NCBI GenBank assembly: GCA_018398815.1
Contig: CM031612.1
Coordinates: 5,537,366-5,601,365, forward strand
Length of the DNA: 64,000 bases
Reading direction: 5' to 3'
From: Conus ventricosus
Lineage: Eukaryota > Mollusca > Gastropoda > Neogastropoda > Conidae
Shown: positions 1,962 to 63,960 of the stretch, piece by piece
How positions within the stretch are numbered: position 1 is the stretch's first letter
Layout: every line of letters begins with the position of its first letter
Translations under genes and position numbers: made by a program
Notes under the pieces: model-generated
Seen by the model: the letters and a program-made list of their open reading frames with translations, nothing else
Told to the model about the DNA's origin: nothing
Databases searched by the model: none

Positions 1962-2031
1962 ATGTGTGTGTGTGTGTGTTAGCGTGCGTGCGCTTGAGTG
2001 TGTGTGTGTGTGTATGTGTGTGTGTGCGCTT

Positions 2032-2077
<46 letters not shown>
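1962..2077. repeat. (TG)n microsatellite next to P4HA exon
   Basis: An interrupted TG repeat that ends about 70 bases before the first recognisable P4HA exon. Comparable (GT)n tracts lie at 1,583-1,640, 5,071-5,105, 5,739-5,773, 7,616-7,700 and 7,864-7,890, all in introns of the same gene. Confidence 0.9.
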
Positions 2078-2078
<1 letters not shown>

Positions 2079-2149
2079 CAAGGGTTGGTGTGTCTGCAAG
2101 CTGTGCACTGTTGCAATCCCTGCTCACAGTGACCTTTGTGACCCCGCAG

Positions 2150-2391: not shown

Positions 2392-2469
2392 GTGAGTCCA
2401 TGTGTCCATGGATATTAAAACGTTAGTACAGGGGTCTGATACTTGGAACCTATATTCTAATGCAGAAGA

Positions 2470-13240: not shown

Positions 13241-13273
<33 letters not shown>

Positions 13274-17320: not shown

Positions 17321-17359
<39 letters not shown>

Positions 17360-19340
17360 GGGGGTTTTTTTTTAAAAAAAAAAAAATTTTTTTTTTTTTT
17401 AAAGGTTTTCCGGGTTTTTGGGAAAAAATTTTGGAAAAAAAAAAAGGTTTTTAAAATTAAAAAATTTTTTAAACCCTTAAAAAAATTTAAAAAAACCCCT
17501 TTTTTTTTAAAAGGGGGGGGTTCCTCCCGGGGGGGGAAAATTTTTTGGGGGTTTTTTTTCCCCAATTTTAAAAAAAATTTTTGGGCTTTTTTTTTTTTAA
17601 AATTTTTTTTTTTTAAGGGGGCCCCCCCCCTTTGGGCCCCCTTTTTTAAAAAATTTTTTTTGGGGGGGGAAAAAAAACCCCCTTTTTTAAAAAATTTTTT
17701 TTAAAAAAAAAAGGGGGTTTTTCCTTAAAAAAAAAAGGGGGTTTTGGGAAAAAATTTTTAAAACCCCCCAAAAAAGGGGAAAAAAGGGTTTTTCCCCAAA
17801 AAAAGGGGGGAAAATTTTTTTGGGGGAAAACCCCCCTTTTTTTGGGGGGGGGCCCCAAAAAAAAAAAAGGGGTTTTTTTTTTAAAAAAAACCTTTTTTTT
17901 TTTTTGGGGGGAAAAAAAATTTTTTTTTTTTTCTTTTTTTTTTTAAAGGGGCCCTTTTTTTTTTTTTAAAAAATTTTTTTTCCCTTTTTAAGAAGGGAAA
18001 AACCCCTTTTTGGGTATAAAAAAAGGGGGGGGGGGAAAAAAATTTTTTTTAAAAATTTGCTTTTTGTTTTTTTCCCTTTTTTGGGTTAAAGGGTTTTTTT
18101 TTTTAAAATTTTTCCCTTTTTTTTTTTTTTCCAAATTGTTTTTTGTTTTTAAACCCAAAAAGGTTTCCCTAAAAAAAAAAAATTTTTTTTTTAAAAAAAA
18201 AAACCCCCCCCCCCTTTTTTGGGGAAAAACCCCCTTTTAAAACAAAAAAATTTTTTTTTTAAAATTTTTTTTTTTTTTGGGGGGGGGGGGAAATTAAAAA
18301 TTTTTTTTTTAACTAAAAATTTTTTCCCCACCCCCCCAAATTTTTCCCCCCCCCCAAAAAAAAAAACCCCCCCAAAATTTTAAAAAATTTAAAAAAAAAG
18401 TTTTTTAAAACCCCCCCCCTTTTTTTTTTTTTTTATTTTAAAAAAAAATTTTTAAATTTTTTTTTTTTTAACCGGAAAAAGAAAAGCAAAACCCAATTTT
18501 TTTTTTTTAAAAAAAAATTTTTTTTAAAATTTTTTTTTTTAAAAAAATTTTTCCCGGTCCTTCATATTTTTTTTCCCGGATTTTTTTTAAACCAAAATTT
18601 TTTAAATTCAAAAAAATAATTAATCAAAAATTTTTTTTGGTTTTAACCAAAAAAAAAAACCCCCCCGGGGTTTTTGGGGTTTGGGGGGAAAAAATTTTTT
18701 TTTTTTTTTTAAACCTTTTTTTTTTCCCCCTTTTTAAAAAAATTTTCCTTCCTTTTTTAAAAAATTTTTCCTTTTGTAGTCATCAAAATGGGCCCCAAAA
18801 AAAAAAATTTTTTTTCCCCTTTTTTGAGTCAGGGGTTTAATTTTTTTGCTTAAAAAATTTTTTTTTTTTTTTTAAAAAAAATTTTTTTTTTTTTTTTTTT
18901 TTTTTTCCCCCCCTTTAAAAAGGGGGAAAAAAACCCCCCCCAAAAAAGGCTGGGGCCCCCCAGGGGAAAGGAAAACCCCCCCGGGCCCCGGGGGAAAAAA
19001 AAATTTAACCCGGGGGGAAAAAACCCGGGGGGGAAAAACCCTTTTTTTTTTTTTTTAAAAAAAACCCGTTTTTTTGAATTTTTTTTGGTTTTAAATTTTT
19101 TTTTGGGGTTTTTTTTTCCCCTCTTCCCCGGGGTTTTTTTTTTTTTTTTTCCCTGTCCCCAAATTAAAAAAAAAAAAAAAAATTTTTTTCTTTTTCTTTT
19201 TCTTTTAATTTTTTTCCCCCCCAAACCTTTCCCCCCCCCCAAAAAGGGTTTTCCCTTTTTTTTAAAAAATTTTTTTTTAAAAAAAAACCCAAAAGGGGGG
19301 TTTTTTCCCCCCTTTGTTGGACTTTTTCCCCTCCCACCCC
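11940..19340. other. Homopolymer-run sequence, probable assembly/base-calling artefact
   Basis: Nearly the whole 7.4 kb consists of alternating runs of 3-15 identical bases (A, T, G and C), with almost no isolated single bases or dinucleotide steps. This resembles no known satellite, because there is no repeating unit. It starts abruptly at about 11,940, after normal sequence. Reading frames here encode only Lys/Phe/Gly/Pro strings and are not genes. I interpret it as extremely low-quality long-read sequence kept in the consensus. Confidence 0.85.
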
Positions 19341-19692
19341 CAAACAATTTTTTTTATTTCGTCAAAAAAGATAAGGTCTAAGCCCCCTAGCGTAGATTTT
19401 GGTTTGGGCTGCCTCAATTGTACATTGAAAATTTCGGTTTTTTTTGGATTTAAAAAACCCTTTTTATTGCTCTTGCGAAAGGGTTTTTCATATTTACAAA
19501 AGCAAATAAAAATACCTTTAAACGATTTTTACTGCGACATAAGAATTTAAAAATTCCCTATAGCGTTGCCCTGCTTTTAGGAAAAGTTGAATGATGACGC
19601 ACGTTTTCGTAATATATTACTAATTGTGATCATATTTGGTTTCTCCCAAAAAACCCCTTTCTAAAATTTGAGTTGCTAACAACCCCCCCCCT

Positions 19693-19784
<92 letters not shown>

Positions 19785-22700
19785 AAAACCCCCCCCCCCC
19801 CCAAAAAATTTTTTTCCCCAAAAACGGCATTAAAACTTTTAAACAAAAACCCCAAAAGGCCCTTTTTGGGCTTGCCTTTAAACAAACCCTGGAGGCCGGG
19901 GGGTTCGGCGTTATTCTAAGTTTTAGTGCTTCTTCATTGCCGATTCTTGAAAAAGCACGATCTTCCCTTTTTTCGCGGTTTGCCCTTTGATCAGAAAAAG
20001 GTTAAAAAATATGTCTTTCATTGTTTAAAGAAAAAACTTCTTGCCCCTAAGTTTTACCCGAAAATTTTTTTTCCCATTGCCCCCCCCAAATTCTGGAAAA
20101 ATTCTTTTTTGGGGGCTGTTTTTGAAGCGAGTTCTATTTTGAAAAAATAAAACCCCTTTCGAGCCGGCACAATAAATCATCCGCTCCAAGGTCTGGAAAT
20201 CAAAAAGAAAAATTTGAAACTGCATCAATAGTAGATGGATTAAATTTGGGAAAAGTAAATATTCCCTTTATTTTTTCAAAGACGGGGTTTCTTTTTAGTC
20301 CCTTTTATCGGGGCAAGAATTTAAACCATAAAACTTGTGACATTTTTTTAAAACAAAATAAAAATTTAAATTTTTTAAAAAAAAGGCGGGCCTTGAAGAA
20401 GAAGATTATATTTTTTACGATCCTGCCCGGGGCAACTAGATGAAAAAACCTTTTAACCCCAGCCCCGCTCGGGATCTCCCTTTGGGGGTGAAAAAAGCTG
20501 AAGGGGGGGGAAAGGGGTGAATTAACCGAAATAAATCAAATCCCTTATACCAAAGTTTAAAGGGCTTTAAAAACCCTGAAACAAAATACCCCGATGATTT
20601 TTAAAAAAAAAGAAAACCATTTGTTTTGTGAAAAAAGGCCCAAAAGGAGAAAATTGTTTTAGCTTAAAGGGATAAACTAAACTCATAAAGGGTTTTTAAC
20701 AAGGGTACAATTAGACAAAAGCCCCAGTGCAAGCGAGCCCGGGATGCCTTTGGGTTTACTAAACCCAAAAATTAATACGGAAGGGGGTTGCTAAAAATTC
20801 AAAAAAAACCCTACAAGAACTCCCCAAAAATAACCCAAAAAGCAAAATAGAAATTTAAAAATTTAAGTTAACAGCGGGCGAAGTAAAAAAACAAAAGTAG
20901 CAAACCACTGGGGAAAAAGAAGAAACAGCATTTTAAAAACTATACATGATCCCCCGAAAAACCCATGAGGAATTATTAGCCCTTGATCGTTTCTTTTTTG
21001 AAACCCTCAAAGGCGAAAATTAAAAAAAACAATGTGCAAAACAAGGGGAACTAGATGAGAAATAAAAAAAGGGGAAAAAAAAAAATCGCCCGAGACTGAC
21101 GACCGCAACGTAGGGCTGAGATTAAAGAAAGAAAAGCCCAAAACTAAAAAATTTTTTGAGCAAAAAAGATCAGCAAGACTTTAAAAGGGTAACTACTTTA
21201 AACCCAGACCAAATTTCGAAACCCCAAAGGGAAAAGAATAAGAAAACTATCGAAAAATTTTTATGAAAAACACGCAAACAGAAAGAATAAAAAAAGCAGT
21301 TTTGAGAGGCAGGGGAAATCACATTAGCAAGCGTTAAACGGCCCAAAAGGGTTTGCAAAAATACGTTGGGTTTGGGTTTTTACGGGGGTGGTGGGGGGCA
21401 AAAAAGGGAGTGGGCCCCCAAACCCATCGTCTGATAAATCCCCTGGGTAAAAAAAACAGCTTGAAACATCTTGCGGTTATTAAAAAAATTAAAACTGGTA
21501 AAGCTATAAAACCTTTTCCCGGTTTTATTAGGGATGTTATTGGGTGGCTTTTGTCTACTGCAAACAAAAATAATTTGGGGTTTATGGCCAGTTATGGGGT
21601 TTTGTTCCCCTTTTAAAAGTTGGGGGTTTTTTTTTTATTTAAAATAAAGACCAAAATACTTCCCAGGGGGATTTCCAATAACCAAAAGCTTTCTTTTTTA
21701 TATTCATTTGGGCTCGCGAACAAAGTCCACGTCTTTACGGGCTTTGGGGTTTGAACCCCGGGATTGGAGGGCTTATTCTTGGGGTTTTTTTTTTATTGTT
21801 TGTAATATTCTGGCTCAGAATTTTGTCGTTTTTTTTTTCCCACCCCTTTTGTTTAAAATTTCCCGCTTTCAAGGATTTTAAATTTTTGTAGTTTAATTTT
21901 TGTTCCCACCCGGTTCCCGAGGGAAAAAGGCCGCATTTTATAAACCAGGCCAACAGCAAAAATCTACTTTTTTGATCTTGCTTTTTTTAAAAAAATTTTG
22001 AAAACCCTTTTTTTACTTTAATCAAAAAAAACTGTTTAAATTTAATTTGGGGTCCTCAAAAAATTTGCCCAAGTATTGTTTTTGTGCAACAAAGCCAGTA
22101 AAAAGGGTTTGTTATGATCGACCCTTTTTCTGTAAATTTCGAACCTAGGGAAACACCAAACGTAATTACGAATATCGTTTTTTCGGGGACTAAATTTCCC
22201 CCTTTAGTTTGGCCCTCAGATGTGTCTAAGATTAATGTTTCCAAGCGTTTTTTTGCTCTTCCCTAAGGGGCCCAAGGGGGAACACCTTGCCGAAGAGAAA
22301 AAAGTGTAAGGAGGGTTCCAGTATTTGTTATATTTTCTGTGCGCCCCCCCAAATTTAAAAGGGGGCCTAAGCCCTGATTAAATCCGACTTTTGTCTAAAG
22401 TCTGTCTTAAAATTTTTAATTTTAATTGCGACAATTTCCTTTTTAAAAGCTTCAGTCTATTCTGTTTTCCCGAATTTGGGTTAAAACGTTTTAGTCATTT
22501 GGGAAAGGTGCTCGCAGTTCAGTCAAAAAACGTCTGAAGTGTAATAGGAAAAAGAAATCGAAAACCCGACCCCACCCAAAGGGTCGGATGATTTTTAAAA
22601 AAAAAGCATACGATCCCCCACACCCCGTTGTTGCACAAAAAACCCGCAAAGTTCCCCTGGTTTGATAAATTTAAAAGCATCGGGTGCTAAACCCCCCTTT

Positions 22701-25700
22701 TTCGATGTAGTCTTTTTTAAAAGGAAAGGGGTTTAAAAAACTTTCTTAATGGAGTACTCACCTTCCCCCGAAAGGGGTCCCCCCCTGGGGACACAATGTC
22801 CAAAAAATCAGTTTCTATATTTTTAAGAATTTTTAATTTTCGGCCCCAACAGAATATTTTGCAATTTTTTAAAAAAAATTTAAACGCGCTCAATTTTTTT
22901 TTTTGTTTTTTTTTTTGTTTATTTTGTTTAAAAAAAGTTTTTTAAAAAATAACCCAAATCAGAAATCCTTTGTTTTTTTTAAAAATGCTGTTTAGAACGA
23001 TTTTGGGGGAACCCAAAATTTGGCGCACTTTCCGAAAATTTACAAAATTTGTTTTTTTAAATTTTAAAATGAAACCCAAAGGGGAATAAAACGATTCAAA
23101 AAATTGACAAAACAGGGGACATAGTTGGCCGGTTAAACCCTACCTGATGGTTATTTGGGTTTTTTTTTGCTAAAAGAACAATGAGTAACTTCGACATTAC
23201 TCTCAAAAAATTTAAAAAGCAAATTTTAAAAAAAAATGTTTAAAATTCAAAGAAGAAGAAGACACACTACCTTTTTGATGTGAGCAAACTAAAATGTTAA
23301 AGGCCCTTTTCAGGAAATTTTTTGAATTTTTGAGTTTTCACCCCGACCAAAAATAAATTTTGAGGGAGGAAAAACCCCTCGATCCTTTAATTATTTTATT
23401 ACTCATGTTTATTTAGATAGCTGAGACATGAAAACTTAAAAAAGGAAAGGGGGCCCAAATGTTTTAAAGCCCCTTTCCCTGGGGAAAGCTGCAATTGCGA
23501 AATTTTTTAAATTTAAAAAATTCCCTAATTTACAGTTTTTTAAAAAATTATTTGTGGGGGGTCGGAAACATTAATATAAAAAACAAAGACAAAAAAGGGA
23601 AAAAAATCTAAATGTTGGGTAACCGCCCCATTGGGTTTTTGGGAAAAACAAAAAAAAAACGTCCCAAAAAATGCGCGGGGGCCGAAGAACCAGGAGTTAC
23701 ATTTGCGCCTGTAAGGTGCATAGCCCTTTTTAAATTTAAAAAACCTTGGGAGACGTTGCGGCCCTTTTAACCCCCAAGGTTAAATAGGGAATTTGTTGGG
23801 TTTTTATACACCCAAAATGGTGAATTTTTAACGCAAAAGGTTGGGGACGAAAAATTTTTCCCAAACCCCAAAAAACTGCGAATCAAAAAGAAATAAAAGT
23901 TGGCCCCGTATTAAAAAAAAATAGTTCGAAAACCTGACCTCAAAAAGGCAAATTTTGGGAAACCCAAATTTTTAAAAGGGAAAAAAAATTTTTAAAAATA
24001 AGCCCATTTTCTTTTTTAGCCCCCAAAAAAATTTCAGAAAAACATTCAAAATCCCGGGCCCTTTTCATGTAAGTCTTATGCCCGATAAAAAATAGTCGGG
24101 AAAAAAATTAAAATAAAGTCGAAAGGAAAAAACCGTCCCTCCTCCACAGAAAAGAAACGGTTTTAAAAAAAGGTACTCAAAATTACAGTTCTTTTCCCAA
24201 ACAGAAAATTTTGGAGACACTTTTACAAAGATAAATTGGGAAAAAACGCCCTTTAAAAAAAGGGGGAGAGGGATTGGGGGTTTTGGGGGCAGTGAAGTCC
24301 TTTTAAAAGAATTAATTTTTAGATGGAAAAAATTGGGCGTTTAAAAATCTTTAAAATTTCCTTTAACGTTCTTTACAAAAGGGGAGGATGTTTAAAATCA
24401 TAACAACAAGCAACAAAAAAAGAGTTGACCCTTTAAAAAGAAACCCAAACTTACAGAACTGAATTGGGTTTTAAAGGTTTTCCAATTTTGGCCCAAAAAG
24501 GTTTTATTTTTCGAAAAAGGCTAACAGAGAGTATGAAAAAAACATAATAACTGAAATTTTAAATTTAAAATTTTATTTTAAAAAATGGGCAGTTTTAAAA
24601 ATTTTTTGACAAAAACCCCTTTATTGTTCATTAATTTGTGGACAAACTGGTTGTGGAAAAAAAATATTTAACCCCGACCGTTACCCAAAAGTTTAATTGG
24701 GAAAAATTTTGATCATATTGTGATTTTTTTTCCCCCCAAAAATTTAAAAGGGAAAAAAGCAAATCATGATAGAAGGTTTTTATTGGCTGATGAAAACATA
24801 TTTTTAGTTTTAAACCTAGCAATTTAAAAGAGTGAGTGCCTTTGAACGCTTTTTTATATTGTTTTTAAAGGGAAAGCAGACATATTTATTAAAGATGACG
24901 TTCCCGCTGAAAAGAACTAGTTAAAAAAAAGGGAAAAACTTTGGCAAAATAGCCTTTTGCGGAAGAAAGCTGGGAAAAGTGTGTGGAAATTTTTGCCAAA
25001 AATATAACTCTTTTTTAAAAACTTTAGAGAAAAATTTAAAAGGGCTGTTTGTTTTTTTCACATGAAAAACCCGAGATGCATTTTATGAAGTTTGCTTGGG
25101 AAAAAGAGTTAATTTAAAATGACCCCGGAAAAAAAAACAGAATTTAAACCCAAAAATTTAAAATCTAAAAAGTTTTGAAATTTGAAATTAAAAAAAAATA
25201 CCCTACACATTTTGTTTTTTTTTGTAGATAAACGTTTTTTTTTGAAAAAAAAAGTCTTTTCTTGTCAGAGAAAAGGGAAAACCCCCAAAGGTCGCCAACC
25301 CGAACCCAGGTGGGGCTAGGGTGGGTTAGAAACGGGGTTTTTTTTTTCCCGTTCTCCCTTTGGGAAATTAAAAAAACCCAACTTGGAATTTATTATGGGT
25401 GACAAAAACCAAATAAAAAAACTTCAAAACCACCCCCATGGATTAATAAAAAACTAAACCCTTTTTTGAGAAAGGGAAAAAACTTTTTTTTAAAAAATTG
25501 AAACACACCAAAATTTAGAAAAAATTCTGGTTTTGGTATAAAAAGTAAAAAAAAAGAAGGTGTCAAAAGAGAATGTAGGCCCTTTTCCCCACTCCAAATT
25601 TTGTTAAATTTAATGAATTTTGAAAGGGGATCATCAAAAAAAATTTTGGGGCTACCTAAGGAAAGGGGAAAAAGATAGGAAACATTGGGATTCCAACCTG

Positions 25701-52214: not shown

Positions 52215-53733
52215 CTGGTGACAAGCGACGCTGCGTTTTTAGATGTGCTGTCTCCAAAATGACAAAAAAACTGTGATTTGGAAAATCTTGCTACTAAAAT
52301 TCAGCACTTGCAAGTATAGTTTAATTCTGCTGGAACATCTTAGACACAGTGCAGTCACACTAGAAATACAGAAATACAGAGAACAGCAACTGAGAGGAAG
52401 GCAATACACCACAGAATACTGTACAACTGAAAATAAAGCTGTCAGATCATCTTGTCAAATATTTGGTCATCAATGTTCATCGCCCTAAATAACTGCTGAA
52501 ATTTATTAAATTTCAATCTCACACGTCCACTTGAACCTTGCCTTTTTCAATGTTCTAAAATAATTCTTTATTCAAAGGCAATCTCACATTTCAATCAATA
52601 TGGCTTTGTCACAAATTTTTAGTCAATGACAGATTGACTTTTCAATTTGACCAAAACTGGCTTTGTCAATGTCTATGTCCAACAATGTTGGCAATAAACA
52701 ACTTTATTTCTACACGAACATCATCAGTTTCACTGCTTGATACTTTTTGGAATAAATCTGCTCATTATGTGAAGTTCATGCTGGTAATGCTGCAGTCTCC
52801 ACTCGACAGAACTTCAGTGTCCACTAACTGCCATCACTAATCTCAAGGATTCTTACAGACTTCCAAACAAAATAATTTTTGAGGACTTTTAACATAGAAT
52901 TCAAGAAATGTAATATAAAAAAATATATGCCTTTATGTCTAATTCAGTTGCTTCACACAGTCATTTCAGTGGAATCTGGTAAGAAGCAGATGTTAAAGAA
53001 GTGGACACTTTTAGCAGATCAACCCAAAGCTTTTAAGCATATTGGGTACATCATTTTTTCTGTATAAACTTGTTGTTTTGTAAAACCATCTGTGTCTTCA
53101 TTTTCACACACTCTGACATAGTCATATGCACTGAAAGCTAAATTTCTAGGACTTTTTAAGTCCTTGAAAAGGGGTCCACAAATTCAAGGACTTTTAAAGG
53201 ACTTTCAACTTGTGTAACCCTGTCCTCTTATTTGCTTAAAAATCAATTTTACCTGAAATGTGGGGTCACTTCCACTTGAAATGTTGCTGAATCATCGCTG
53301 GTTTCAGTGACAATCCACTAACAGCGTGACCAGTCTACTGTGCTTCTCACGTGAGTAACAACACCTATGCGTATCACTGACATGCGTTTGTCCCGACCAA
53401 TAGGAGGGATTATATACTGGCGCATTTCCTGGTGCCCAGGATAGCCTATGCAACAGCACGTTTTCCCATCGAGAAGGGTTAGTACAGCCAGTTGGCCAGT
53501 TAAATTTGTTGAAATGAGGAATGTGTGAGTCTTATGGTAAGTGTGTCTACTGTGAATGCGTCAGTATCTACGCATTGTTCAAGTGTGTGCTGCATTTCAG
53601 TGCCTGATGTTAGAATTGTACGGTGGATCTAAGAAAAGATCATTGCTGTTAGAGGTCGACTGTGTCAAGGGCACATCATTATGGAAAGCAGAATCCATTC
53701 CTCTCCTTCTGTCTCCTCAACCTCCCCTGAATC
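52215..53733. other. Non-coding, probably JARID2 intron
   Basis: No further upstream JARID2 exon was recognised. The sequence is AT-rich and of ordinary complexity. Confidence 0.5.
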
Positions 53734-54142
53734 AGGGACCCACTTCTGGCTGCCTTGACAGAGGATTTTCAGGGACCCACTTCTGGCTGCCTTGACAGAG
53801 GATTTTCAGGGACCCACTTCTGGCTGCCTTGACAGAGGATTTTCAGGGACCCACTTCTGGCTGCCTTGACAGAGGATTTTCAGGGACCCACTTCTGACTG
53901 CCTTGACAGAGGATTTTCAGGGACCCACTTCTGGCTGCCTTGACAGAGGATTTTCAGGGACCCACTTCTGGCTGCCTTGACAGAGGATTTTCAGGGACCC
54001 ACTTCTGGCTGCCTTGACAGAGGATTTTCAGGGACCCACTTCTGGCTGCCTTGACAGAGGATTTTCAGGGACCCACTTCTGGCTGCCTTGACAGAGAGGA
54101 TTTTCAGGGACCCACTTCCGGCTGCCTTGACAGAGGATTTTC
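53734..54142. repeat. 37-bp minisatellite, eleven copies
   Basis: Unit AGGGACCCACTTCTGGCTGC plus CTTGACAGAGGATTTTC, 37 bases, eleven almost identical copies; one carries a 4-base GAGA insertion. No spacers, so it is not a CRISPR-like array. Confidence 0.97.
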
Positions 54143-54524
54143 AAGTCATAAATATTGAACCCACTACTGATCTGAATGCATAACTCTCCGCTCTGCAGGC
54201 CAACATTTAACCATCAGAGAATGTAAATATACGGGTTCAAGACCACCCATGTTATTTTGCACGAAAACCCCCCTTTTCACATCTAAATCACGTCCATCAC
54301 ATGTCAATTTTGGCCAATTTTAACACCTGTTTTTAAACAAAATTAACACCTCAAAACCTCTAAATATTGACGTTATTAACACATTGAAACGGGGGCTTAC
54401 GTGCTAGATAAGATTTGGTGATTGTGAACTGTATATTTACCTTCTCTCCCAGACATATAAAATGAACTAAAAATGTATATGTATATGGCTTAACAGTTTA
54501 CTACAAACTGGTCCTGCCGCCGTC

Positions 54525-54592: not shown

Positions 54593-54682
54593 GTTGGGCG
54601 GCCAGTCCCGTCAACACTGCAGCGGTGTCAGCAACACCCCTGCAATGCGGCAAATTAGTATTCATTGCGCGATGCACGCCGA

Positions 54683-54707
54683 CCAATCAGAAGGAGGTAT
54701 GACGTCA
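54683..54707 (+). promoter_or_regulatory. CCAAT box and full CRE palindrome
   Basis: CCAAT at 54,683-54,687 and the complete CREB/ATF site TGACGTCA at 54,700-54,707 lie 132-156 bases before the start codon of the 54,839 gene. The spacing of a CCAAT box and a CRE just upstream of a transcription start is typical of a TATA-less RNA polymerase II promoter. Direct function is inferred from motifs only. Confidence 0.6.
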
Positions 54708-54838
54708 TTTTTGGTCGACAGGCTCGCAGATCCCCAGCCAGTCTGCCATTTGTGACCGGGACGCCACATTGGAAGGTTGTGTGCTGTGTGCAGGCGCGTG
54801 CATTTTCTGTGATAGAAGTGATTTTACCAGAAATATTT

Positions 54839-55696
54839 ATGTCTCAAGACAGCATTTCTTCAGAATTAGAGAGAGAACTTCTGGAATCGCAAGTTGCTCA
54901 TCAAAATTTATTAGATTTTTCAACACAGCCATCAACTTTAATTTTACCTGATATGGATCAAGCTTCTACCTCTAAACAAGCTCAAAATCTCCTGCTACCA
55001 CCCCCAACACCAACGGAATTGTGGACTGAAGAAGAAATGTGTATTTTGCGGGAGAATCAATACTACTTTCAAAAAATGATAGAAATAATAGAAAAAGCAA
55101 AAACAAAAGGGCCACAGAAATTGCCAAAGAAGCCTAAAACAACACTCCAACATTTGTTTAAAGAAAAGGAAGGCAAAAAGACAAGCAGGAAAGAGTTAAC
55201 ACAAGGTGAGCTGCATAACTATCTTATGTCAAGTCAGGCTGACGTTCAATCAGCTATTTTGAGAGAAGCATTTTCTGAAGATCTTTTTTCAATCACAACA
55301 GATGAAAATGAAGTTGTGGACAGGTTGCAAAAGGGGGTGAGAAATCTGAAGAAGCAGGATGCTCAAACAATCATGATCTACGTTCAGTTTGGGAATTTCT
55401 TGAATCTTTGCAAAAACTGGCATGAAGAGGCAAAAAAAGCTGGAATGATAAAAGAAACTTGGGGTCAGTGGCTTAAAGAGAAATGTGGATATTCTGATGA
55501 TCATGCTCGCAAATTGCGTGCTGTTTCAAAAGTGCTTTTTGGGTATCCTCAGTTTTACACTGTTGGCCTCCCCTTCAGCTTTATTTTCAGCAATTTAAAA
55601 CAAATTCAAACCATGCTGCAAGCCCCTCAATTTGGAGACTATTGGAAAAAACCTCTCAGTCTACCTCCAACAACTACCCTGCAAGCCTCCCAGTGA
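54839..55696 (+). CDS. Uncharacterised intronless protein, 285 aa, basic linker and HTH-like C-terminal region
   Basis: Intact frame from ATG 54,839 to TGA 55,696. The frame is open further upstream, but only from TTG, and the CRE lies there, so the ATG is preferred. The protein starts MSQDSISSELERELLESQ and has an acidic/polar N-terminus. A basic nuclear-localisation-like linker at residues about 95-130 includes KLPKKPKTT. The C-terminal helical region (about 150-270) includes W-H-E-E-A-K-K, WGQWLKEKCGYSDDHARKLR and FGYPQF. The '.W..WL.e..g.S...A.k.r' pattern resembles DNA-binding HTH proteins of mobile elements and phages (DUF3102-like), but I cannot name it. No introns, no poly(A) tail, good codon continuity. 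It is the only unbroken gene of the right-hand cluster. A role as early/regulatory or DNA-binding protein is inference. Confidence 0.75.
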   Translation: MSQDSISSELERELLESQVAHQNLLDFSTQPSTLILPDMDQASTSKQAQNLLLPPPTPTELWTEEEMCILRENQYYFQKMIEIIEKAKTKGPQKLPKKPKTTLQHLFKEKEGKKTSRKELTQGELHNYLMSSQADVQSAILREAFSEDLFSITTDENEVVDRLQKGVRNLKKQDAQTIMIYVQFGNFLNLCKNWHEEAKKAGMIKETWGQWLKEKCGYSDDHARKLRAVSKVLFGYPQFYTVGLPFSFIFSNLKQIQTMLQAPQFGDYWKKPLSLPPTTTLQASQ

Positions 55697-56336: not shown

Positions 56337-57093
56337 TTAACGTCCGCGGGACTGAGCCCTTGCTACTTTTCTAGTATGCTCTTCTACTTCTAGCTCTATT
56401 AATAAATCAGAACAAACAACTGGCTTTCCATCTTGATTAGTTATTTTTACATCCAATGAATTTATAGTATCCCAAATTAATTCTTTAAATTGGCTGTCTC
56501 CATCAAAACTATATAACTGATAATCGCAAAACCCTGCCCTAGTTGGTAGCAAAACCTTTAGAACTGTAGATGGATAGCCGGCAAACAAATTAGCACATGT
56601 TTTTAACTGTTGTAAATTAACATACAAAATTGGATTTACGAGAAAATCAGATGGTCTATTACCTAAATATTTATAAATGCCCCATTCTACAAGGCCGTGT
56701 GTGCTGAAGCTATATGTTTCACCACTGCCATAAAAGCCCAAAATTCTAGCAAGGCTTCTAGGAAAAACATACTCCTTTTTTTCTTTAAGTTCTGGAAAAT
56801 TTATAGTAATTTTGAGGTTTGCTTCGTTAATTGTTAACAATATACTATATTCGCTAAGTACTTCTTTTTAAAGAACAAAAGTTGTAGTAGCCATCGGGTA
56901 TTTTTAAACGTTTTAATATATTGCCTTGTTCGTCCTTAACATTAATCCAGTTATTCTGAGCCTTTTCAGATATGTTAGCCCACATAACTTTAAACCCAAT
57001 TTCTCTAAGGGCAGCCCTATAATTACCGCGTCTATTGTCAATTGGGTAGGTTAAGGGCACACGTTTGTTTTGTTGGTTTATATAGATGCGCAT
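56337..57093 (-). pseudogene. Virus-like structural-protein candidate, beta-rich family, one frame break
   Basis: Read from ATG at 57,093: MRIYINQQNKRVPLTYPIDN, then RRGNYRAALREIGF and GYYNFCSL. After a one-base frame offset at an A-run near 56,855-56,860 the sequence continues through INEANLKITINFPEL, FPRSLARILGF, NRPSDFLVNPILYVN, GYPSTVLKVL and INSLDVKITNQDGKP to a stop at 56,337 (about 250 codons in total). The order 'DnRrG...aL......gyYnf.......v.i.......LaeiLGF.....g.rp.dF.....lyv.l.ql.t..N...G.PStvL.v......f..l......l.v.i.d.dGk......l..eleI' recurs in uncharacterised invertebrate proteins that I have seen beside virus-like genes. Function is unknown; a capsid or particle component is inference. 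Head-to-head with the next gene. Confidence 0.65.
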
Positions 57094-57128
57094 CTTTTTT
57101 TATAACTATTTAAAAAATTAATTTAAAA
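57094..57128. promoter_or_regulatory. 35-bp divergent intergenic region
   Basis: The start codons of the minus-strand and plus-strand genes are separated by only 35 very AT-rich bases (TATAACTATTTAAAAAATTA and flanks). TATAA- and TATTTAAA-like motifs on both strands could serve as a shared bidirectional core promoter. Such spacing is typical of viruses and unusual for host genes. Confidence 0.5.
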
Positions 57129-58354
57129 ATGGGAGCATTTAAATATGATGAAAATGCTGCTTACAATGTAGGAGCGTTTTATAACCCCAAATCTTTGGAC
57201 TTCAGTTTACTAACCATTGCAGTAGATGGATCATACGGCTTCCAATTTAGACTTGTAAACCCACTAACTAGATATTTAAATCCGCCAATAAAGAGTGACA
57301 GAGTGCCATCAGCATGGTCATCCCACCCTATGGCTTTTTTCCAGAATCAGTTAAATTTTGTCATTTACTGCGCAACTACTGGCTGCGGTGTTTCATATGC
57401 AGACCATTTAAACCATCCTAATCTTTTAGTAAGGTCAGTATATAACTTTCATGTTTATTACCAGTACAGGCGAATACTAACTGAACTACAAGTGCCCCTC
57501 CCTAACGACAACGCGTTTTATCCATTTAACAGCCCAATGGACAATAATGCATATGAAAGAATTTGCAACGAATTTAACATTAATCCTTTAACTGATTTTA
57601 GACAAAAGTTAGACCTCAATCATGGGTTAGGCACATTGTATTTGTGGGGCGAACGTAGAGAATATAATTATGACTACTGGCCTGGCCACACCTCCTTCCA
57701 ATCAAACGCACAAGTTCGATTGGGATCCATAGAACAAAAACACCCTAATGCTTGGACAACATTTATCTTAGATGAAAGTAAAGGCCTAACAATGGCAGGA
57801 GTGCAAAGACTTAATGACTCCATAAGGACATTTGGTGTCTATTAGGAGCGCAAGCACAGACCAAGTCTAGCATATCTGATCAATCTACAGGCTTTGATGC
57901 TAGAAAACAATTTCTAGTTAATTTAGAAGATGCTATTAACTCTGCTGTTAATTTACCTGCCAGCATACAAAGGTATCAAGACGTTCTTGCACATGCTAGG
58001 TCAAAGGTTGACTTTGTTGTAGGCCATGGATTATACATGCTACCCTCTGACCTTAGACTACAGATTGGTATGATACAGAATTATAACAATGAAATCCTCA
58101 TAGCTGGAGACGACCAAGACTTAGGGCACAATAAATACTTAAACACAAGGCCCGCTCCATCCATTTTAAAGAAAGTACCTAGCCCTGAAGAAAGCAGCCC
58201 ACAACCAGAAAGCGTCCCACAGCCAGAAAGCAGCCAAGAAAGCACACCGCCTGTTAATGTACCTTACACTGACAGTCATACTAGCGAAAAGACAGCCCTT
58301 GTTGTATTTTTAACTTTTGCTGGTTTAGCCTTACTTTATTTCACTAAAAATTAA
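57129..58354 (+). pseudogene. Virus-like protein with C-terminal membrane segment, one frame break
   Basis: The first frame runs from ATG 57,129 (MGAFKYDENAAYNVGAFYN) for 238 codons to TAG at 57,843-57,845. A frame offset by one base continues without a gap as GAQAQTKSSISDQSTGFDAR, NLEDAINSAVNLPASI, ARSKVDFVVGHGLYMLPSDL to TAA at 58,354, about 408 codons together. The junction motif ...QRLNDSIRTFG / GAQ...SS falls inside a block that I remember as continuous in related invertebrate proteins, so this is probably a broken single gene rather than two genes. The C-terminal part has a Pro/Ser/Glu-repeat linker (PQPES repeated) and one hydrophobic segment (ALVVFLTFAGLALLYF) before the end, suggesting membrane anchoring. 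Function is unknown; a virion protein is inference. Confidence 0.65.
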
Positions 58355-58408
58355 TCCAGAGTAACGCTCTAACGTCACAGATGGTCGGCCATATAACCAG
58401 CCACCTTA

Positions 58409-58630
58409 CTATAGTAGACAAACCCAACTAACAACACTGCCAATTATTCCAGTCAGAGCATCAAGCGTTTGGCTGTAATTCTTTATCAGTTTGCTAGGTG
58501 GTGGTTGTAATTGTTTTTAATCAATTTTTCCAGGCTGAGGTGTTGGAGGCGTTATGGCCTGTTGCGCACCAACTGTTAAAGCATAAACGTGTGTGGAGAT
58601 AGCAAACCCAACGGGCTGTTAACTATCTAA
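58409..58630 (-). pseudogene. Small Pro-rich protein with hydrophobic end, broken
   Basis: The minus strand reads VNSPLGLLSPHTFML, then in another frame VGAQQAITPPTPQPGKID, a stop, and QLQPPPSKLIKNYSQTLDAL followed by the hydrophobic TGIIGSVVSWVCLL, ending at TAG 58,409-58,411. Convergent with the preceding gene, with a gap of 54 bases. One frame offset and one in-frame stop. No family is recognised. The layout, a Pro-rich segment plus a single hydrophobic helix, could be a small structural or membrane protein. Confidence 0.45.
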
Positions 58631-58660
58631 CTATTGTTAATCCCTGTTCCCTGACAGTCA

Positions 58661-59366
58661 TTATTCTTCAGCTAGGTAGTGTTTTATAAAGTTTTGGTTT
58701 ATAAGTTTCTCTTTTCTGCTTGTTTGCGCTGTAGTGCACTTGTTATCAGATAACACTTCTAACCTGGATTTTCTTTCTTCATTAAATTTGTATTTTCTGC
58801 AGTATCTAGCTTTTTTCTTGACCTAAATTTGTATAATCTGTTTAGCCAGCTTATTTTTTCTTCTTCTATCTCTCTATTCCTTTTCTCGCTAAGTTTTGTT
58901 AAATTGTTTTTCTAGTTCGCCTCTTATTGCATTTAGGCGTTCATAAGAGTAGGAGGTCAAGCATAGGCCTATGGAGGGATCGTCAATTGTTCTAATGTTT
59001 TTTCTGACTGGTTTCTCACTTAAACTCGTTTCCACTTTCTGTTGTGCATCATTTATTTTGATCTTAAATCTTCGAAAAAAGTGGTCATTTCTATTTTCAG
59101 ATTGCTTGGGCAACTCTTGCCTACGTTTTCGTAAAAGGACTAACAGCCTCAGGCCTTAAATTTAAATGTTTATCGCCTTTGGTCGGCAACAGGGACCTCT
59201 GTTTAAGTTGTTTAGTTTTAAAATTAAAAACTTGTTGGGTCTGGCGGTGTAGTAATCTTACAAAATTTCCTCTGCTAGTTTTATATAGAGGGTTGCTTTT
59301 ATCTATCTTAAAATCAAAGGCTATGACCTTTGGCGGCTCCAACTCCTGACGTTTATGTAGAATGAG
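58661..59366 (-). pseudogene. Basic, charged protein, several frame breaks
   Basis: Open on the minus strand from 59,366. No ATG is found before EPPKVIAFDFKIDKSNPLYK, RGNFVRLLHRQTQQVFNFK. A first break near 59,121 leads to QELPKQSENRNDHFFRRFK, SLSEKPVRKNIRTIDDPSIG. A second, near 58,900 at a T-run, leads to KLSEKRNREIEEEKISWLNR. A third, near 58,775, leads to EERKSRLEVLSDNKCTT and a stop at 58,661-58,663. Strongly Lys/Arg/Glu-rich, possibly coiled-coil or nucleic-acid-binding. No family is recognised. Confidence 0.45.
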
Positions 59367-59405
59367 TTAATTTCTATTGCAATAGTTCTGACGAGATGCC
59401 GGGGG

Positions 59406-59707
59406 CTAACTGAGGGGTGTTTCTGCTTCTTCTATGAGGGATTGAAGAACTGCTTTTGCTCTTTCAAGTTCTTCGCGCATTGAAGGGCCTAATTCTGTTT
59501 CATCTTCTTCAAATGAAGGCCTGCAGATTCTTTTTCTTCAATAGGTTCATCGCGTCTAAATTTAATCCTCTTTTTATTTTTTATATTTCTTTTTTGTTTT
59601 ATAAAAAATTGAATCATATGGTTGTGACCTCGATCCATACAGACAGAGAAGGAAACCCATGGCGTGAAGGTATAAGGCAGGTCTGTAATTAGTGTAAAAT
59701 ACTCCAT
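59406..59707 (-). pseudogene. ~100-codon protein with acidic helical C-terminus, one frame break
   Basis: From ATG at 59,707: MEYFTLITDLPYTFTPWVSF, MDRGHNHMIQFFIKQKR, a basic NIKNKKRIKFRRDE segment. After a break near 59,520-59,530 at a T-run it continues PSFEEDETELGPSMREELER and AVLQSLIEEAETPLS to TAG at 59,406. A TTG at 59,728 would extend the frame slightly. It is immediately upstream of, and parallel to, the 58,661-59,366 tract. Unknown function. Confidence 0.45.
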
Positions 59708-60040
59708 CAACAATTCATCCTGGGACAAGATTTATAGTATGTTCTGATCTTGGCTTGACGATGTTATAATGCAGGCACTGCTAAACTATCATTCAAATAG
59801 TTATTACATCGGCAGATCTAATGCTTCGTTGTTGCTAATTTAGGCAGCGCAATCTTAATTCACATATAATAAAACTGGGAGGGTAATGAAGTCTTGTGTA
59901 CTAAGAGCGGCAGGATATTTTTGCTTTATTTGATTGTGGTTGCCTAAAAGAAAGGAAGAGAAAGTTTAATCAGGAATACATAAGCCAAACGGCCTAAGCA
60001 CAGGCTTAAGAGGTGATGCAAGGATGAGTGTTAAAAGATG

Positions 60041-60882
60041 AGCAGTAGGGCAGAGCTTTGGCACAGATTCTGCATCCTCTAGATTGAGTGTTAAAGACGC
60101 ATATGCATATTACCAAGGCGCACTAATAGAAAAACTACGTATAATGACATTTAATCTAGCAGTTTGTTGTTTTGTCAGAAAGATCCCTTAGCTACATACG
60201 CTGTAGCGACATTTATCTTGGAAGTTTGGATGTTGTTATAACCTGGGACTGGCGTAGAACTAATCTTAACCAGAATAAAACGGTTGAACGGTTATTTATT
60301 ATGAAAACGTTATACAGCATTACAGAAAATAAAAACAAGCGAGCACTCTCTGGAACATACATCTAAATACAGTCTCTGAAGTCTTTAAAAGAATTTTTGT
60401 TTTATTTACGAAGGAAACAACTCCTTTCAGAGAGATTCCAGACGTGTTTTATAATCCAAAAATTGAGAAGTTGACTGTGTAATAATTGGCAGGTCTGATC
60501 GGATGTATCAGGGCGGGACTTTTACCTCACCAAACTTTGTGAAATAAGAAAGTTGTTCGCTGGGGCAGGCTAAGGGATCTGCGTTGTTCGTGTTATGAAA
60601 AAACTTCGCCTTTATGATGTAAGACTCGAAGAACTACTTAATAAATAAATTTGGGCTGTGCTGTGGTTGGATTTTTAGATATACATTTGGACTATACAGA
60701 TTGGTTTGGAAGTGGAGAAAGGATAGGCAAGATGGTATAAAAATAAATATTCACAAGGAAAAAGCAGAGGGAATCGGCCAACCAATACGTTGCACATTTT
60801 TATGGTTTGTTGTTGTCAGTTAAACATTGAGGAAAACAGACTAAAAGATATGACCTTCTCAAATGAAGAAGAAATATTATAA
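60041..60882 (+). pseudogene. Virus-like large structural-protein candidate, multiply broken
   Basis: Successive + frames read in order: SFGTDSASSRLSVKDAYAYY (to 60,191); SDIYLGSLDVVITWDWRRTN and NKNKRALSGTY (to 60,366); VSEVFKRIFVLFTKETTPFR followed by EIPDVFYNPKIEKLTV (60,369-60,482); IIGRSDRMYQGGTF; EIRKLFAGAG; RLYDVRLEELLNK; AVLWLDF; DWFGSGERIGKM; DGIKINIHKEKAEGIG; QLNIEENRLKDM (to 60,882). This block order ('f...t..fr.iP.vyYnP.IEk.t......d....irk.F......l....WlD.R......HGsGr.ie...i...i.k.aE..g') matches an uncharacterised invertebrate family that I remember. At least five frame breaks. Capsid-like role is inference. Confidence 0.6.
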
Positions 60883-61559
60883 TAATAACTTGATGGTAGC
60901 TTAAAGTTTTCTGCAAAAGATCGCATGTTCTTCTTATCTGTGGGGGATTAAATTGGTTGTGGAAAACTGTCTTCGTATTGATTGTACCAACAATATATAG
61001 GTTTCAGTACGGAACTTGGTTATATTATGCACAATATTAAGTCAACAGTTTACATAGAAAGGTAGTTTATTTGACAGTTGAGTATATATTTCTAAGTGTT
61101 CCTAGCGACAAAAACTGAGCAATGTTTTTTTAGAACATTACATAGACTATTTGAGGGAATGAAACCAGTTATGATGATGATGATCGCTGAAGAGGACATT
61201 GATTTAAAAGAAAAGCTCTGTCAATGTAGCTTTGCGGTGCCACGCCTTAGTTTCTGTGTGGCTCTTAACTCAAAAATACAATGTGTCTAAAAGACTTTAG
61301 ATCGCAGTTAATTTAAAATCAGTTTTGTATTATTTTACATAGGACAAAGATAGTTTGAAGAATGTTTAGGGAAAAATTATATAATAAGGGACAAAGATGA
61401 GTTACAAAAATAAAGAAGCAGTTAGAACAATCTAAGCACGCTATGCTAGGCTTACGGACTGACCCTCAAGTTCGATACGTTTGTTTTTGTAGATTGTTTT
61501 AATATTAATTGCTTATAAATTTGTTTATTATATTTTGTTATTAAAAAAGAATGTCTCGA
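60883..61559. other. Poorly resolved part of the element
   Basis: A + frame at about 61,120-61,290 reads FRTLHRLFEGMKPVMMMMIA and EEDIDLKEKLCQC and may be coding debris. The rest is AT-rich, without a coding signal that I can support. Confidence 0.35.
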
Positions 61560-62520
61560 GGGCCAGAATCAAAAGTGCAGTAGTCTAAATGCACTGCAGT
61601 AGAGCTAACGGACCTAGGAGAACAACTGAGTTTGATCTATAGGAGTGCAAGGGAAATGTTTATGGATTTGAGTTCAGACTGAGGGGTTTACAACGACAGA
61701 AATTGGAAGACAAAAAAGACAGCAACATTTTTTTTTTGGCCCTGACGAGATAAGAAATTTAAGAGCGGAAAGACTTTGGCAAACGCGAATACAATTCATA
61801 AAAGAGAGAATGTTTGGGCTTTTGCTTCAGAAATTGACTGGAATTTAAGTTTGAAAACTACGATAGCCAAGCCCAATGTATATACGTAAGAAAACAATTT
61901 TAGAAAAGGTTTGAATGAAGGCCTTTTGTGAGCTAGTCCAGGAACACAACAGAAAAAACAGGTTGAAATAAATAGGCAGGGTTCGGAATCTATGCTTAAG
62001 AGAAGAAAGTCTTTGCTGAATGGGGGGTGACTCCGTAGGCTTAGAATATACCCCAAAATAGAATCACTACCTAGGCAAATGACGATGATTTTTCGTTATA
62101 TATTACTCGAGGGGGGCGATATAGTTTTGGCAGACTTACGTTTATTAGGAGGCATAAAATTAAAGGTGAAAATTGGATGAACCCGTTTAGTCGTTATGTT
62201 ATTACTAAAAGGAGTGAAATAAACGATTGATCATCTGACAGGTTATGTGATGGTTGACAAAGTCAACACTACTGTACTCGACATTATTTTCTTAAAGTAT
62301 TTTGATTTTTTGCGTTTTACTCTGTTGTTGAAGTGCCTGCCAGAAGGATTATTAAGAAGTTATATTTAAGATTAATTAATAAAAATAATTTAGTTAAAAA
62401 ATGGAGGTTCATCAGTTTAGGTTAGAGCCATAATGATCTTTCAAAAGGAAATAGAAATGACTTGGATAAGTTATGAGTTACTAGCCGGCCTCTGTACGCA
62501 TTAAATACTCTTTCTTATGT
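61560..62520 (+). pseudogene. Decayed coding tract, unknown
   Basis: The + strand shows successive coding-like pieces in changing frames: VELTDLGEQLSLIYRSARE (from about 61,600), FEFRLRGLQRQKLEDKKDSN, FGPDEIRNLRAERLWQTRIQ with FIKERMFGLLLQKLTG (about 61,735-61,850), RYILLEGGDIVLADLRLLGG (about 62,095-62,150), VEVPARRIIKKLYLRLINKN and WRFISLG (about 62,326-62,420). No family is recognised. At least five frame changes; probably one or two broken genes. Confidence 0.4.
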
Positions 62521-62634
62521 AATCCTGGCTTCTGCTTATTAGGGTAAGTGCTGGGTTGGTGTTGCTCTTTTGCTAGTGGGGTCGGAGCGCCAGCCTCTTT
62601 AAGCATTAGGGGTCTTGGTTTAGGTTAGGCCGCC

Positions 62635-62931
62635 ATGACTATGATTGTAAGTGTGCTGTTTAAAAAAATTAAGTCCTAAAATTACAAAAGCACACAGCCA
62701 TTGTATCCTAGCATCGGCAAAACTTGTTTAATTAAGTTTAGAATAAGCAAATCATTAAGGATGAAATACATTTCGGACGAAGAATTTCCGAAGCTTATGG
62801 CCGAATGGCGATGATTACAGACGGAAGAAAATTGAACTTCAAAAAGGGTGGAGAAAGACTTTTACTTCACGACAGGTAGACATGATGCAAATTAAAAGAA
62901 CATTGAAAAACACTACACATGATCGGTTTTA
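62635..62931 (+). pseudogene. Small basic protein, one stop and one frame break
   Basis: Starts with a textbook initiation context, GCCGCCATGA, at 62,635 (MTMIVSVLFKKIKS, then a TAA near 62,677). It continues in the same frame as STQPLYPSIGKTCLIKFRIS and MKYISDEEFPKLMAEWR, then changes frame at about 62,810 to RRKKIELQKGWRKTFTSRQV and DMMQIKRTLKNTTHDRF, stop near 62,931. The second half is strongly basic, suggesting nucleic-acid binding. No family is recognised. Confidence 0.45.
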
Positions 62932-62996
62932 AACCCAAAATAAGCCAAAAAAAATAAGTTTAACAAAAAATTAAAATATAAGTTTACGCACAAACT

Positions 62997-63092
62997 ATGT
63001 TTTTTGTTATCACTGTGTTTGGTGGACAAATTGAAATCATCACGAACAAAGATCTTTTAGGGGCTGGCTTTTTAGACGTGTTGCGCCGCTAG
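62997..63092 (+). CDS. Possible 31-codon small ORF
   Basis: ATG 62,997 to TAG 63,090-63,092: MFFVITVFGGQIEIITNKDL then LGAGFLDVLRR. It is intact but very short and may be the remains of a larger gene following the preceding basic tract. Function unknown. Confidence 0.3.
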   Translation: MFFVITVFGGQIEIITNKDLLGAGFLDVLRR

Positions 63093-63141
63093 AAGAGAGG
63101 TCTCTCTTAAATAATACACGGAGGGTCTGTTTTCATAATTC

Positions 63142-63345
63142 TTAAACTTCATATACGTCTACGCTCATATAGGTCTGTGGCTCTAATTCAACATCCCTTT
63201 GCTCTCAGGAGCATACTCGTATTACCGTTTAGGTTCAAAGGCAGGAGTTTTTGATTACTTGCCATTCTTCTGTAATGCTAATTTTTTTTACTTTGATTGC
63301 GTTTACTGGTTTAAGACCTGTTGCTTTAAATTCTTCATTGTTCAT
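63142..63345 (-). pseudogene. Short broken minus-strand gene
   Basis: From ATG 63,345: MNNEEFKATGLKPVNAIKVK followed by KISITEEWQVIKNSC. A stop and frame changes follow at about 63,235, then YEYAPESKG and DVELEPQTYMSVDVYEV to TAA at 63,142-63,144. About 65 codons. No family is recognised. Confidence 0.4.
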
Positions 63346-63379
63346 GGCACGTTAAGATGTGGCAATCTCCTAACATTCT

Positions 63380-63960
63380 GTGATTGGTTCTCTGTACTTT
63401 CGTAGTGTCCATAATTTCTCTGTGGATATTGATAGGTAAACAGGCGTTCGGCTAGAATTTTATTAAAGTTTCTACAGGGCTTGTGATCGATGGATGCTGG
63501 GATCCTCTCTTAATCTGTAACATGATGTTTTAAAACCAGTGGTTGGCAGTCCTTTAATACTCTTTCCATCATCAACCTGAATCTTCTAGGATACTGTAAT
63601 GGGTCGCATGTATTATTTTGTTGTAAAGCACAGCCACAGCAGTTGAGGCTTTTATCCGTTAAAGGTTCGGGTTTTGTATCTTGACAGCCATGTCAAAACT
63701 GTCAAGGGCATACGTAAACTGTTTTCTTCTAATTGATATGTGGAGATACAGCAAGTCATCTGCGTGGGTGTCATTTGGAAATGATGTTAACAATCTAGGC
63801 CATTATTCTTTTTGGGGGGGCAGTATATTTGCCAAATTGCTTGTTTATGAAAGCCGTCTTTCGCATCTGATTAGAATCTAGCAGCTTTACTGAGTTTTTC
63901 AAATAGCAGTCTTTCCTTTCCAATACCTATTGGAGGAATAATTATTTTGTGCTTATCCTA
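63380..63960 (-). pseudogene. Broken minus-strand gene with a Cys cluster
   Basis: Pieces in order on the minus strand: IIIPPIGIGKERLLFEKLSK, QMRKTAFINKQFGKYTAPP, SFPNDTHADDLLYLHISIRR followed by KQFTYALDSFDMAVKIQNPN, TDKSLNCCGCALQQNNTCDP followed by RRFRLMMERVLKDCQPLVLK, then ERIPASIDHKPCRNFNKILA and ERLFTYQYPQRNYGHYES. Four or more frame breaks. The C-C-x-C...C cluster could bind zinc. The tract may continue beyond the window. No family is recognised. Confidence 0.45.

What the first reader, a model, noticed from the sequence alone, without database searches (positions are those of the whole stretch)
56337..63960. Compact virus-like gene cluster of unnamed type embedded in an animal genome
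Seen: about ten intronless coding tracts on both strands with 35-90 base gaps, divergent and convergent pairs, and one protein with a C-terminal membrane segment. None of this looks like the neighbouring host genes. From memory: three tracts (56.3, 57.1 and 60.0 kb) follow motif orders (GYYNF...LGF...PSTVLKVL; QRLNDSIR...GAQ...ARSKVDF; REIPDVFYNPKIEK...GSGERI...QLNI) that recur together as 'uncharacterised' proteins in cnidarian, mollusc and other invertebrate genomes. Inference: they form the structural module of a virus or virus-like transposon lineage that has not been given a clear identity.
Basis: partly seen in the sequence, partly recalled or inferred. Interest (0 to 1): 0.88.

Follow-up and report, generated by a model that had tools for sequence, protein, structure and literature searches.

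The report
High-copy Polinton-like virus transposon, partly decayed
The gene cluster is the left half of a roughly 21-kb Polinton-type element, a virus-like jumping gene with capsid, DNA-packaging, polymerase and integrase genes that exists in very many copies in this animal genome and differs from textbook Polintons in the mark it leaves on insertion.

Summary
It is the left 9.8 kb of a 20.8-kb element (window 54216 onward, ending 11 kb beyond the window) with ~245-bp terminal inverted repeats (TIRs), 98.8% identical. Sister copies and the right half carry a B-family DNA polymerase, rve integrase, A32-type ATPase and a major capsid protein weakly matching a giant-virus capsid family: a Polinton/Maverick-type gene set. 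Only 56.3-58.35 kb is well preserved here. In the core (59.8-62.5 kb tested) 13-20% of sites differ where sisters agree: a mosaic of young ends and old core. The 3.52-Gb host genome holds 1,044 exact TIR-end matches. In 14 of 19 end pairs the flanks duplicate exactly 5 bases; published vertebrate Mavericks have 6. The ~400-residue protein at 57.1 kb, often with a C-terminal hydrophobic segment, has 62 relatives but no known family. No maturation protease was found among frames scanned. An older relic of the lineage lies at 19.3-25.1 kb. Verdict: new variant of a known kind.

The parts
54216..54460 (+). left terminal inverted repeat (about 245 bp; starts AGAGAA; itself a hairpin of two ~62-bp arms, about 54216-54276 / 54385-54447)
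   Evidence: Homology stops at 54214-54216 in 8 of 8 sister copies; inverted copy at L026:771-1015 98.8% identical, the left TIR's best other match among 40 scored; 5-bp flank CCATC at both ends
54665..55696 (+). accessory open frame, 343 aa, unknown function; present in some copies only
   Evidence: Pfam DUF3102 E 0.062, below cut-off; PHROG 15609, unknown function, E 5.9e-4; 40-48% aa identity to L012:7285-8125, 26% to L027:3664-4245. In 5 of 8 sister copies (L011, L015, L021, L022, L025) the TIR directly adjoins the 56.3-kb gene
56337..57099 (-). gene of ~246 aa next to the 57.1 gene, candidate minor capsid (penton-like) protein; split by one frame change in this copy
   Evidence: intact relative L002:2239-2976, 71-85% aa identity; no significant Pfam, PDB or protein-database relative. 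The penton role is inference from position and recalled motif order
57129..58354 (+). '57.1' protein: family of mostly ~380-415 aa, often with a C-terminal hydrophobic segment; one frame change at about 57.83 kb in this copy
   Evidence: 62 relatives, best 66% identical over 99% of the query; 150 of 150 scored genome copies 82-100% identical; C-terminal segment above KD 1.6 in 24 of 38 members of at least 380 aa
58418..59700 (-). decayed coiled-coil protein gene (matched part 58418-58612); sister protein has one hydrophobic segment at residues 291-316 of 395
   Evidence: 60% aa identity to part of L018:7696-8880; hydrophobicity; 'coiled-coil' is my reading of the sequence; upper limit inferred from sister gene order
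59605..60834 (+). decayed major capsid protein gene
   Evidence: 34-36% aa identity in several frames to sister MCPs L018:6773-7672 and L020:6606-7835; family evidence
61241..61366 (+). remnant of A32-type packaging ATPase gene
   Evidence: 55% aa identity to L024:6111-6638, itself Pox_A32 E 1.8e-14
61545..62366 (+). decayed gene(s) of unknown function in two overlapping frames
   Evidence: 45% to L018:4871-5698 and 42% to L013:2807-3169
62432..62929 (+). decayed gene of unknown function; sister protein has hydrophobic segments
   Evidence: 44% to L013:3179-3754; hydrophobicity
63011..63940 (-). decayed rve (retroviral-type) integrase gene
   Evidence: 32-68% aa identity to L013:3815-4348 and L013:4386-4826; the latter matches Pfam rve E 9.3e-6
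19318..25104 (.). older relic of the same lineage: MCP (-) 19318-20304, coiled-coil (+) 21242-21640, 57.1 family (-) 22494-22862, ATPase (+) 24580-25104
   Evidence: tblastn E 1e-18 to 6e-6, 24-42% aa identity

Best explanation
The cluster is the left half of an endogenous Polinton/Maverick-type element: a self-synthesising DNA transposon that is probably also an integrating double-stranded DNA virus. Inferred mechanism: the element-encoded B-family polymerase copies the linear DNA from its inverted repeats; the rve integrase inserts it with a 5-base staggered cut, leaving 5-bp duplications; the MCP, a candidate minor capsid protein (56.3 kb), the ATPase and accessory virion proteins (57.1 protein, coiled-coil protein) build and fill a capsid. 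Shown: the gene set by sequence, the terminal repeats, the 5-bp duplications, more than a thousand exact ends, and dN/dS below 1 between copies. Inferred: polymerase action, packaging, particles, and the virion role of the 56.3 and 57.1 proteins. This copy is defective: young arms enclose an old decayed core, most simply explained by recombination or gene conversion between a young and an old copy.
For: The two TIRs are 98.8% identical; the left TIR's best other match among 40 scored is this copy's own right TIR (99%), next 95%. 14 of 19 end pairs have exactly 5-bp duplications, 0 of 342 mismatched pairs do. DNA_pol_B_2 E 2.4e-9, 37.1 bits, above cut-off (L020:540-1427); polymerase motifs DANNLYG and YTDTDS (motif names recalled). 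Pox_A32 1.8e-14. rve 9.3e-6. Capsid_N in 29 of 52 MCP relatives. dN/dS 0.29 for the 57.1 gene over 28 pairs of the 8 best-matching copies and 0.14-0.57 for ten other gene pieces. Of 19 end pairs 8 are 14.4-16.9 kb apart.
Against: TSD is 5 bp, not the 6 bp published for vertebrate Mavericks (passages). No adenovirus-type protease seen in the ORFs scanned. The rve match (26.3 bits) is below its curated cut-off; of the two Capsid_N matches whose bits I saw, P0066 is above (28.2) and P0132 below (16.8) the cut-off of 24, and the reference relative P0063 has none. The PDB profile searches with the MCP and 57.1 alignments found no significant relative. No fold test was possible. Pattern-based IMG/VR scans confirmed no relative, so there is no independent sign of a free virus.
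Confidence: 0.92

Rival explanations
1. A chimeric 'meldvirus': Polinton-type replication and integration genes joined to a capsid module from a different (giant-virus/pox-like) lineage, as proposed for Meld23486 by Buck et al.
For: A32-type ATPase and Capsid_N-type MCP of only ~426 aa; Buck et al. describe such a chimera (Results and legend read).
Against: The 2014 Polinton MCP paper already links Polinton MCPs to PBCV-1 Vp54 and places the Polinton ATPase with those of viruses with double jelly-roll MCPs, so no chimerism is needed.
Confidence: 0.25
2. A cellular gene cluster or domesticated host genes unrelated to mobile DNA.
For: dN/dS below 1 between copies.
Against: Terminal repeats, target duplications, over a thousand exact ends, different flanks in the nine copies examined.
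Confidence: 0.01
3. The mosaic of young arms and old core in this copy is an assembly error joining two copies.
For: Fall in best-sister identity from 94-100% (56.2-58.2 kb) to 74-89% beyond 58.6 kb, and a duplicated segment at L009 1.5-2.5 and 4.3-5.4 kb where identity rises again; a stretch with abnormal homopolymers elsewhere in the window shows the assembly is not flawless.
Against: Both ends carry the same 5-bp duplication and very similar TIRs, as one insertion should.
Confidence: 0.2

Closest known systems
Polinton/Maverick elements (Krupovic et al. 2014, PMC4028283, parts 1-2 of 4 of the text read; Barreat and Katzourakis 2021, PMC8097293, passages read)
   Same: 15-20 kb scale, terminal inverted repeats (here starting AGAGAA; published end motifs (AG)3 or (AGT)2), B-family polymerase, rve integrase, packaging ATPase, MCP with a second candidate capsid gene nearby, intronless genes on both strands
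   Different: 5-bp instead of 6-bp duplication; gene order differs from the vertebrate Maverick order in the passage read; no protease detected; TIR is a hairpin (not compared with published TIRs); carries the unassigned 57.1 protein
Cnidarian Polinton MCP types that fall outside the main Maverick-Polinton cluster (Bellas et al. 2023, PMC10120064, passages read)
   Different: not tested; here the host is not stated and the only named relative seen is from the sea slug Elysia marginata
Meldviruses such as Meld23486 (Buck et al. 2024, PMC11071296, abstract, Results and legends read)
   Same: adintovirus-like PolB and integrase with a capsid module resembling larger DNA viruses
   Different: sequence relationship not tested; here shown as a high-copy genomic family

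Membership tests
Polinton/Maverick | about 15-20 kb with terminal inverted repeats | tested here: met
   window copy 20,800 bp, C27 copy ~15.1 kb, both with ~245-bp TIRs; of 19 end pairs 8 span 14.4-16.9 kb, others 0.3-9.9 or 20.8-33.3 kb
Polinton/Maverick | B-family (protein-primed type) DNA polymerase | tested here: met
   DNA_pol_B_2 37.1 bits over cut-off 25.8; protein priming and terminal-protein domain not tested; no single full-length frame shown
Polinton/Maverick | rve-family integrase | tested here: met
   rve E 9.3e-6 in L013:4386-4826, 26.3 bits, below the curated 32.6; the frame covers only part of the domain
Polinton/Maverick | FtsK/A32-type packaging ATPase | tested here: met
   Pox_A32 54.3 bits over cut-off 22.8; Walker A motif
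Polinton/Maverick | double jelly-roll major capsid protein | tested here: inconclusive
   Capsid_N matched by 29 of 52 relatives at E <= 0.1, best 1.7e-6; no PDB sequence relative; fold prediction unavailable
Polinton/Maverick | single jelly-roll penton protein | not testable with these tools
   56.3-kb gene has no significant sequence match
Polinton/Maverick | adenovirus-type cysteine protease (74% of Polintons in Krupovic 2014) | tested here: inconclusive
   no protease family among ORFs scanned; a genome search with PF00770 found none but its controls were silent too
Polinton/Maverick | 6-bp target site duplication | tested here: not met
   14 of 19 pairs exactly 5 bp, 1 poly-G of at least 6 uninformative, 4 without
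Adintovirus (Buck definition) | PolB with OTU-like domain, Hexon recognisable by BLASTp, integrase with chromodomain | not tested
   reference sequences not held; Starrett 2021 not in the library

The most novel reading that the evidence does not exclude
This is a distinct animal lineage of Polinton-type viruses, defined by a 5-bp integration footprint, a ~426-aa capsid protein, a conserved hydrophobic-tailed 57.1 protein and hairpin-shaped TIRs that can also move alone as 277-394-bp mini-elements. It has no relative in IMG/VR by our pattern scans and has recently been active, with 1,044 exact ends in one genome.
Probability: 0.4. Interest if true: 0.65.

Novelty: new variant of a known kind. 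Interest (0 to 1): 0.5.

Why it matters
It ties gene families that lack any name or Pfam entry (57.1 protein, 56.3 protein) to one mobile virus-like unit with a capsid gene that has almost two thousand database relatives. A Polinton-type integrase with a 5-bp footprint, if it holds in other species, would separate lineages by a simple measurable mark. The many copies with open frames make the family a good place to look for Polinton transcripts or particles.

Tried and rejected
Considered and rejected: host genes; phage origin (MCP tblastn against 50,697 phage records: no match); hypermutation of the core (substitution types broad, few CpG changes); amplification of this mosaic as a unit (nearest of 39 other scored copies of its MCP stretch is 88% identical). 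A protein search with the 176-aa 56.3-kb frame found nothing at E <= 0.001. The first-look candidate numbers (34,611 for the 57.1 protein, 45,124 for the PolB piece, 4,575 for the TIR, 3,086 for MCP DNA) are not used as copy numbers; only 150, 76, 40 and 40 candidates were scored. PolB as one full-length frame was not shown: the 1,317-aa frame in L081 gave no Pfam match at E <= 0.01 and ends in a microsatellite. A further copy chosen for a TSD check showed no right TIR in the 4.5 kb fetched (L028).

Dropped or adverse rows: of 19 end pairs 4 show no duplication (one faces an N run, one lies in TG/CA repeats, one has inverted flanks, one is unexplained) and one is poly-G; one mismatched control pair shares 6 bases. 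A further group of facing ends on C2 near 89.81 Mb with two possible partners was left out. The left TIR of a copy is closer to its own right TIR than to every other end in 9 of 12 copies; in one it ties and in two it is not. dN/dS: one search used the 8 best-matching copies only, one of them with a stop codon that was skipped; one search kept only matches of at least 75% identity and about 45% coverage, and 5 of its 10 values rest on a single pair. The coiled-coil gene also varies among sister copies (best 84% at L018:8001-8400), so low identity at 58.6-59.4 kb is not by itself a sign of decay.
Full report
What is there. The protein at 57.1 kb has 62 relatives in the protein collection, the full-length ones mostly 380-415 aa, the best 66% identical over 99% of the query. 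It has no significant Pfam or PDB match; with 52 relatives scanned only weak Pfam hits appeared, the commonest a tri-helix bundle model in 12 of 52, best 5.5e-4.

The whole element. The 57.1 protein matches the host genome massively: 150 of 150 scored matches are 82-100% identical, and by my hand count of the table about 47 of 150 have no stop inside and an open frame of at least 380 aa. I fetched eight sister copies. DNA comparison shows that homology begins at window base 54214-54216 in 8 of 8, with different flanks in each. To the right, homology continues through the neighbouring sequence L009 to L026:1015, where an inverted copy of the left 245 bp ends. The element is therefore C18:5591581-5612380, 20,800 bp. 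The C27 copy is about 15.1 kb. A genome search with the left TIR returns this copy's own right TIR as best other match of 40 scored candidates (99%), the next at 95%.

Insertion mark. An exact 35-place TIR-end pattern (31 fixed letters) occurs 550 + 494 times, the reversed control 0 times. Only the first places were listed; from them I took 17 pairs of facing ends, plus the window and C27 copies. Fourteen of 19 have exactly 5 duplicated bases, one lies in poly-G, four have none; 0 of 342 mismatched combinations show exactly 5. Two of the pairs are only 277 and 394 bp long and carry 5-bp duplications, so the hairpin TIR seems to move on its own (inference). Within-copy TIR divergence ranges from 0.4% to 14.7% in 12 copies; the window copy has 3 differences in 244. 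Vertebrate Mavericks are described with 6-bp duplications (PMC8097293, passages). Two paper searches for Polinton with 5-bp wording gave none and one paper; its passages concern Ginger and TDD elements. This does not show that such a mark is unpublished.

Gene content. From natural frames of sister copies, in window order: accessory gene (variable), candidate minor capsid gene (-), 57.1 gene (+), coiled-coil protein (-), MCP (+), ATPase (+), two or three small genes (+), integrase (-), three small genes, PolB (-), TIR. No one copy showed all of these open. Family matches: Pox_A32 1.8e-14, rve 9.3e-6, DNA_pol_B_2 2.4e-9, Capsid_N in 29 of 52 MCP relatives. The MCP has 1,959 relatives at E <= 0.001, the best 120 listed, one named 'Major capsid protein' from Elysia marginata. 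P0002 and P0063 both list a longest contig of 13,209 bases, and P0012 and P0092 both 13,194, which suggests that the two families share contigs elsewhere; this was not verified. No protease family appeared in the ORFs scanned.

State of the window copy. In 400-base chunks the best sister is 94-100% identical at 56.2-58.2 kb and 94-98% along the PolB arm (L009 7.2-10 kb), 86-88% at 58.2-58.6 kb, and 74-89% from 58.6 kb to L009 2.4 kb; the TIR itself is 86-91% like the sisters listed. L018 against its sisters is 94-98% over L018:4801-8000, which covers MCP to ATPase and beyond. Private substitutions in the tested core stretches (59.8-62.55 kb) are 13-20% against 1.5-4.4% in sisters, with a broad spectrum; the left arm could be compared with one copy only (7 of 1,058 sites). 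The nearest other copy of its MCP stretch is 88% (40 scored). The simplest reading is recombination or conversion between young and old copies; a misassembly is not excluded.

Selection. dN/dS summed over 28 pairs of the eight best-matching copies of the 57.1 gene is 0.29, about 0.2-0.3 for the more distant pairs and 0.4-0.8 for the closest. Ten other gene pieces give 0.14-0.57, five of them from a single pair. This fits a lineage that replicates with functional genes while individual insertions decay.

An older relic of the lineage lies at 19.3-25.1 kb of the same window with the same MCP, coiled-coil, 57.1 order (24-42% aa identity), supporting long-standing co-localisation; its ATPase piece is out of place.

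Comparison. Gene content, size and TIRs are those of Polintons/Mavericks; the 5-bp mark, the missing protease evidence, the gene order and the 57.1 protein set it apart. I therefore call it a Polinton-type element of a variant lineage, not a certified member in every defining feature. Three pattern-based IMG/VR scans found no relative (57.1 protein; MCP).

Noticed in passing
window 12001-19000: 80-88% of bases lie in homopolymer runs of four or more, against 12-18% in five ordinary 1-kb stretches counted; it looks like a sequencing or consensus artefact and coincides with long low-complexity frames.
   Followed up: partly
window 19318-25104: Second, older relic of the same element lineage, beside the artefact region.
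   Followed up: partly
window 53658-54170: 37-bp tandem repeat array just left of the element's left end.
   Followed up: no
L059 (C3:121443481-121443817) and L060 (C4:31552182-31552635): Mini-elements of 277 and 394 bp with TIR ends and 5-bp duplications.
   Followed up: partly
L002:2239-3629: The candidate minor capsid gene is duplicated in tandem in the C6 copy, the second frame shorter.
   Followed up: no
L022:7170-8545: The C25:38.79M copy sits directly against a polymerase-arm fragment of another copy, suggesting nested insertion; the other half was looked for in L028 and not seen.
   Followed up: partly
L018:124-2102: A second, more divergent copy of the coiled-coil and MCP genes (44-70% and about 60% aa) lies near the C28 copy.
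   Followed up: no
window 1966-2418: Host-like coding piece with a GT-rich start; it resembles a prolyl 4-hydroxylase alpha exon by recall only.
   Followed up: no
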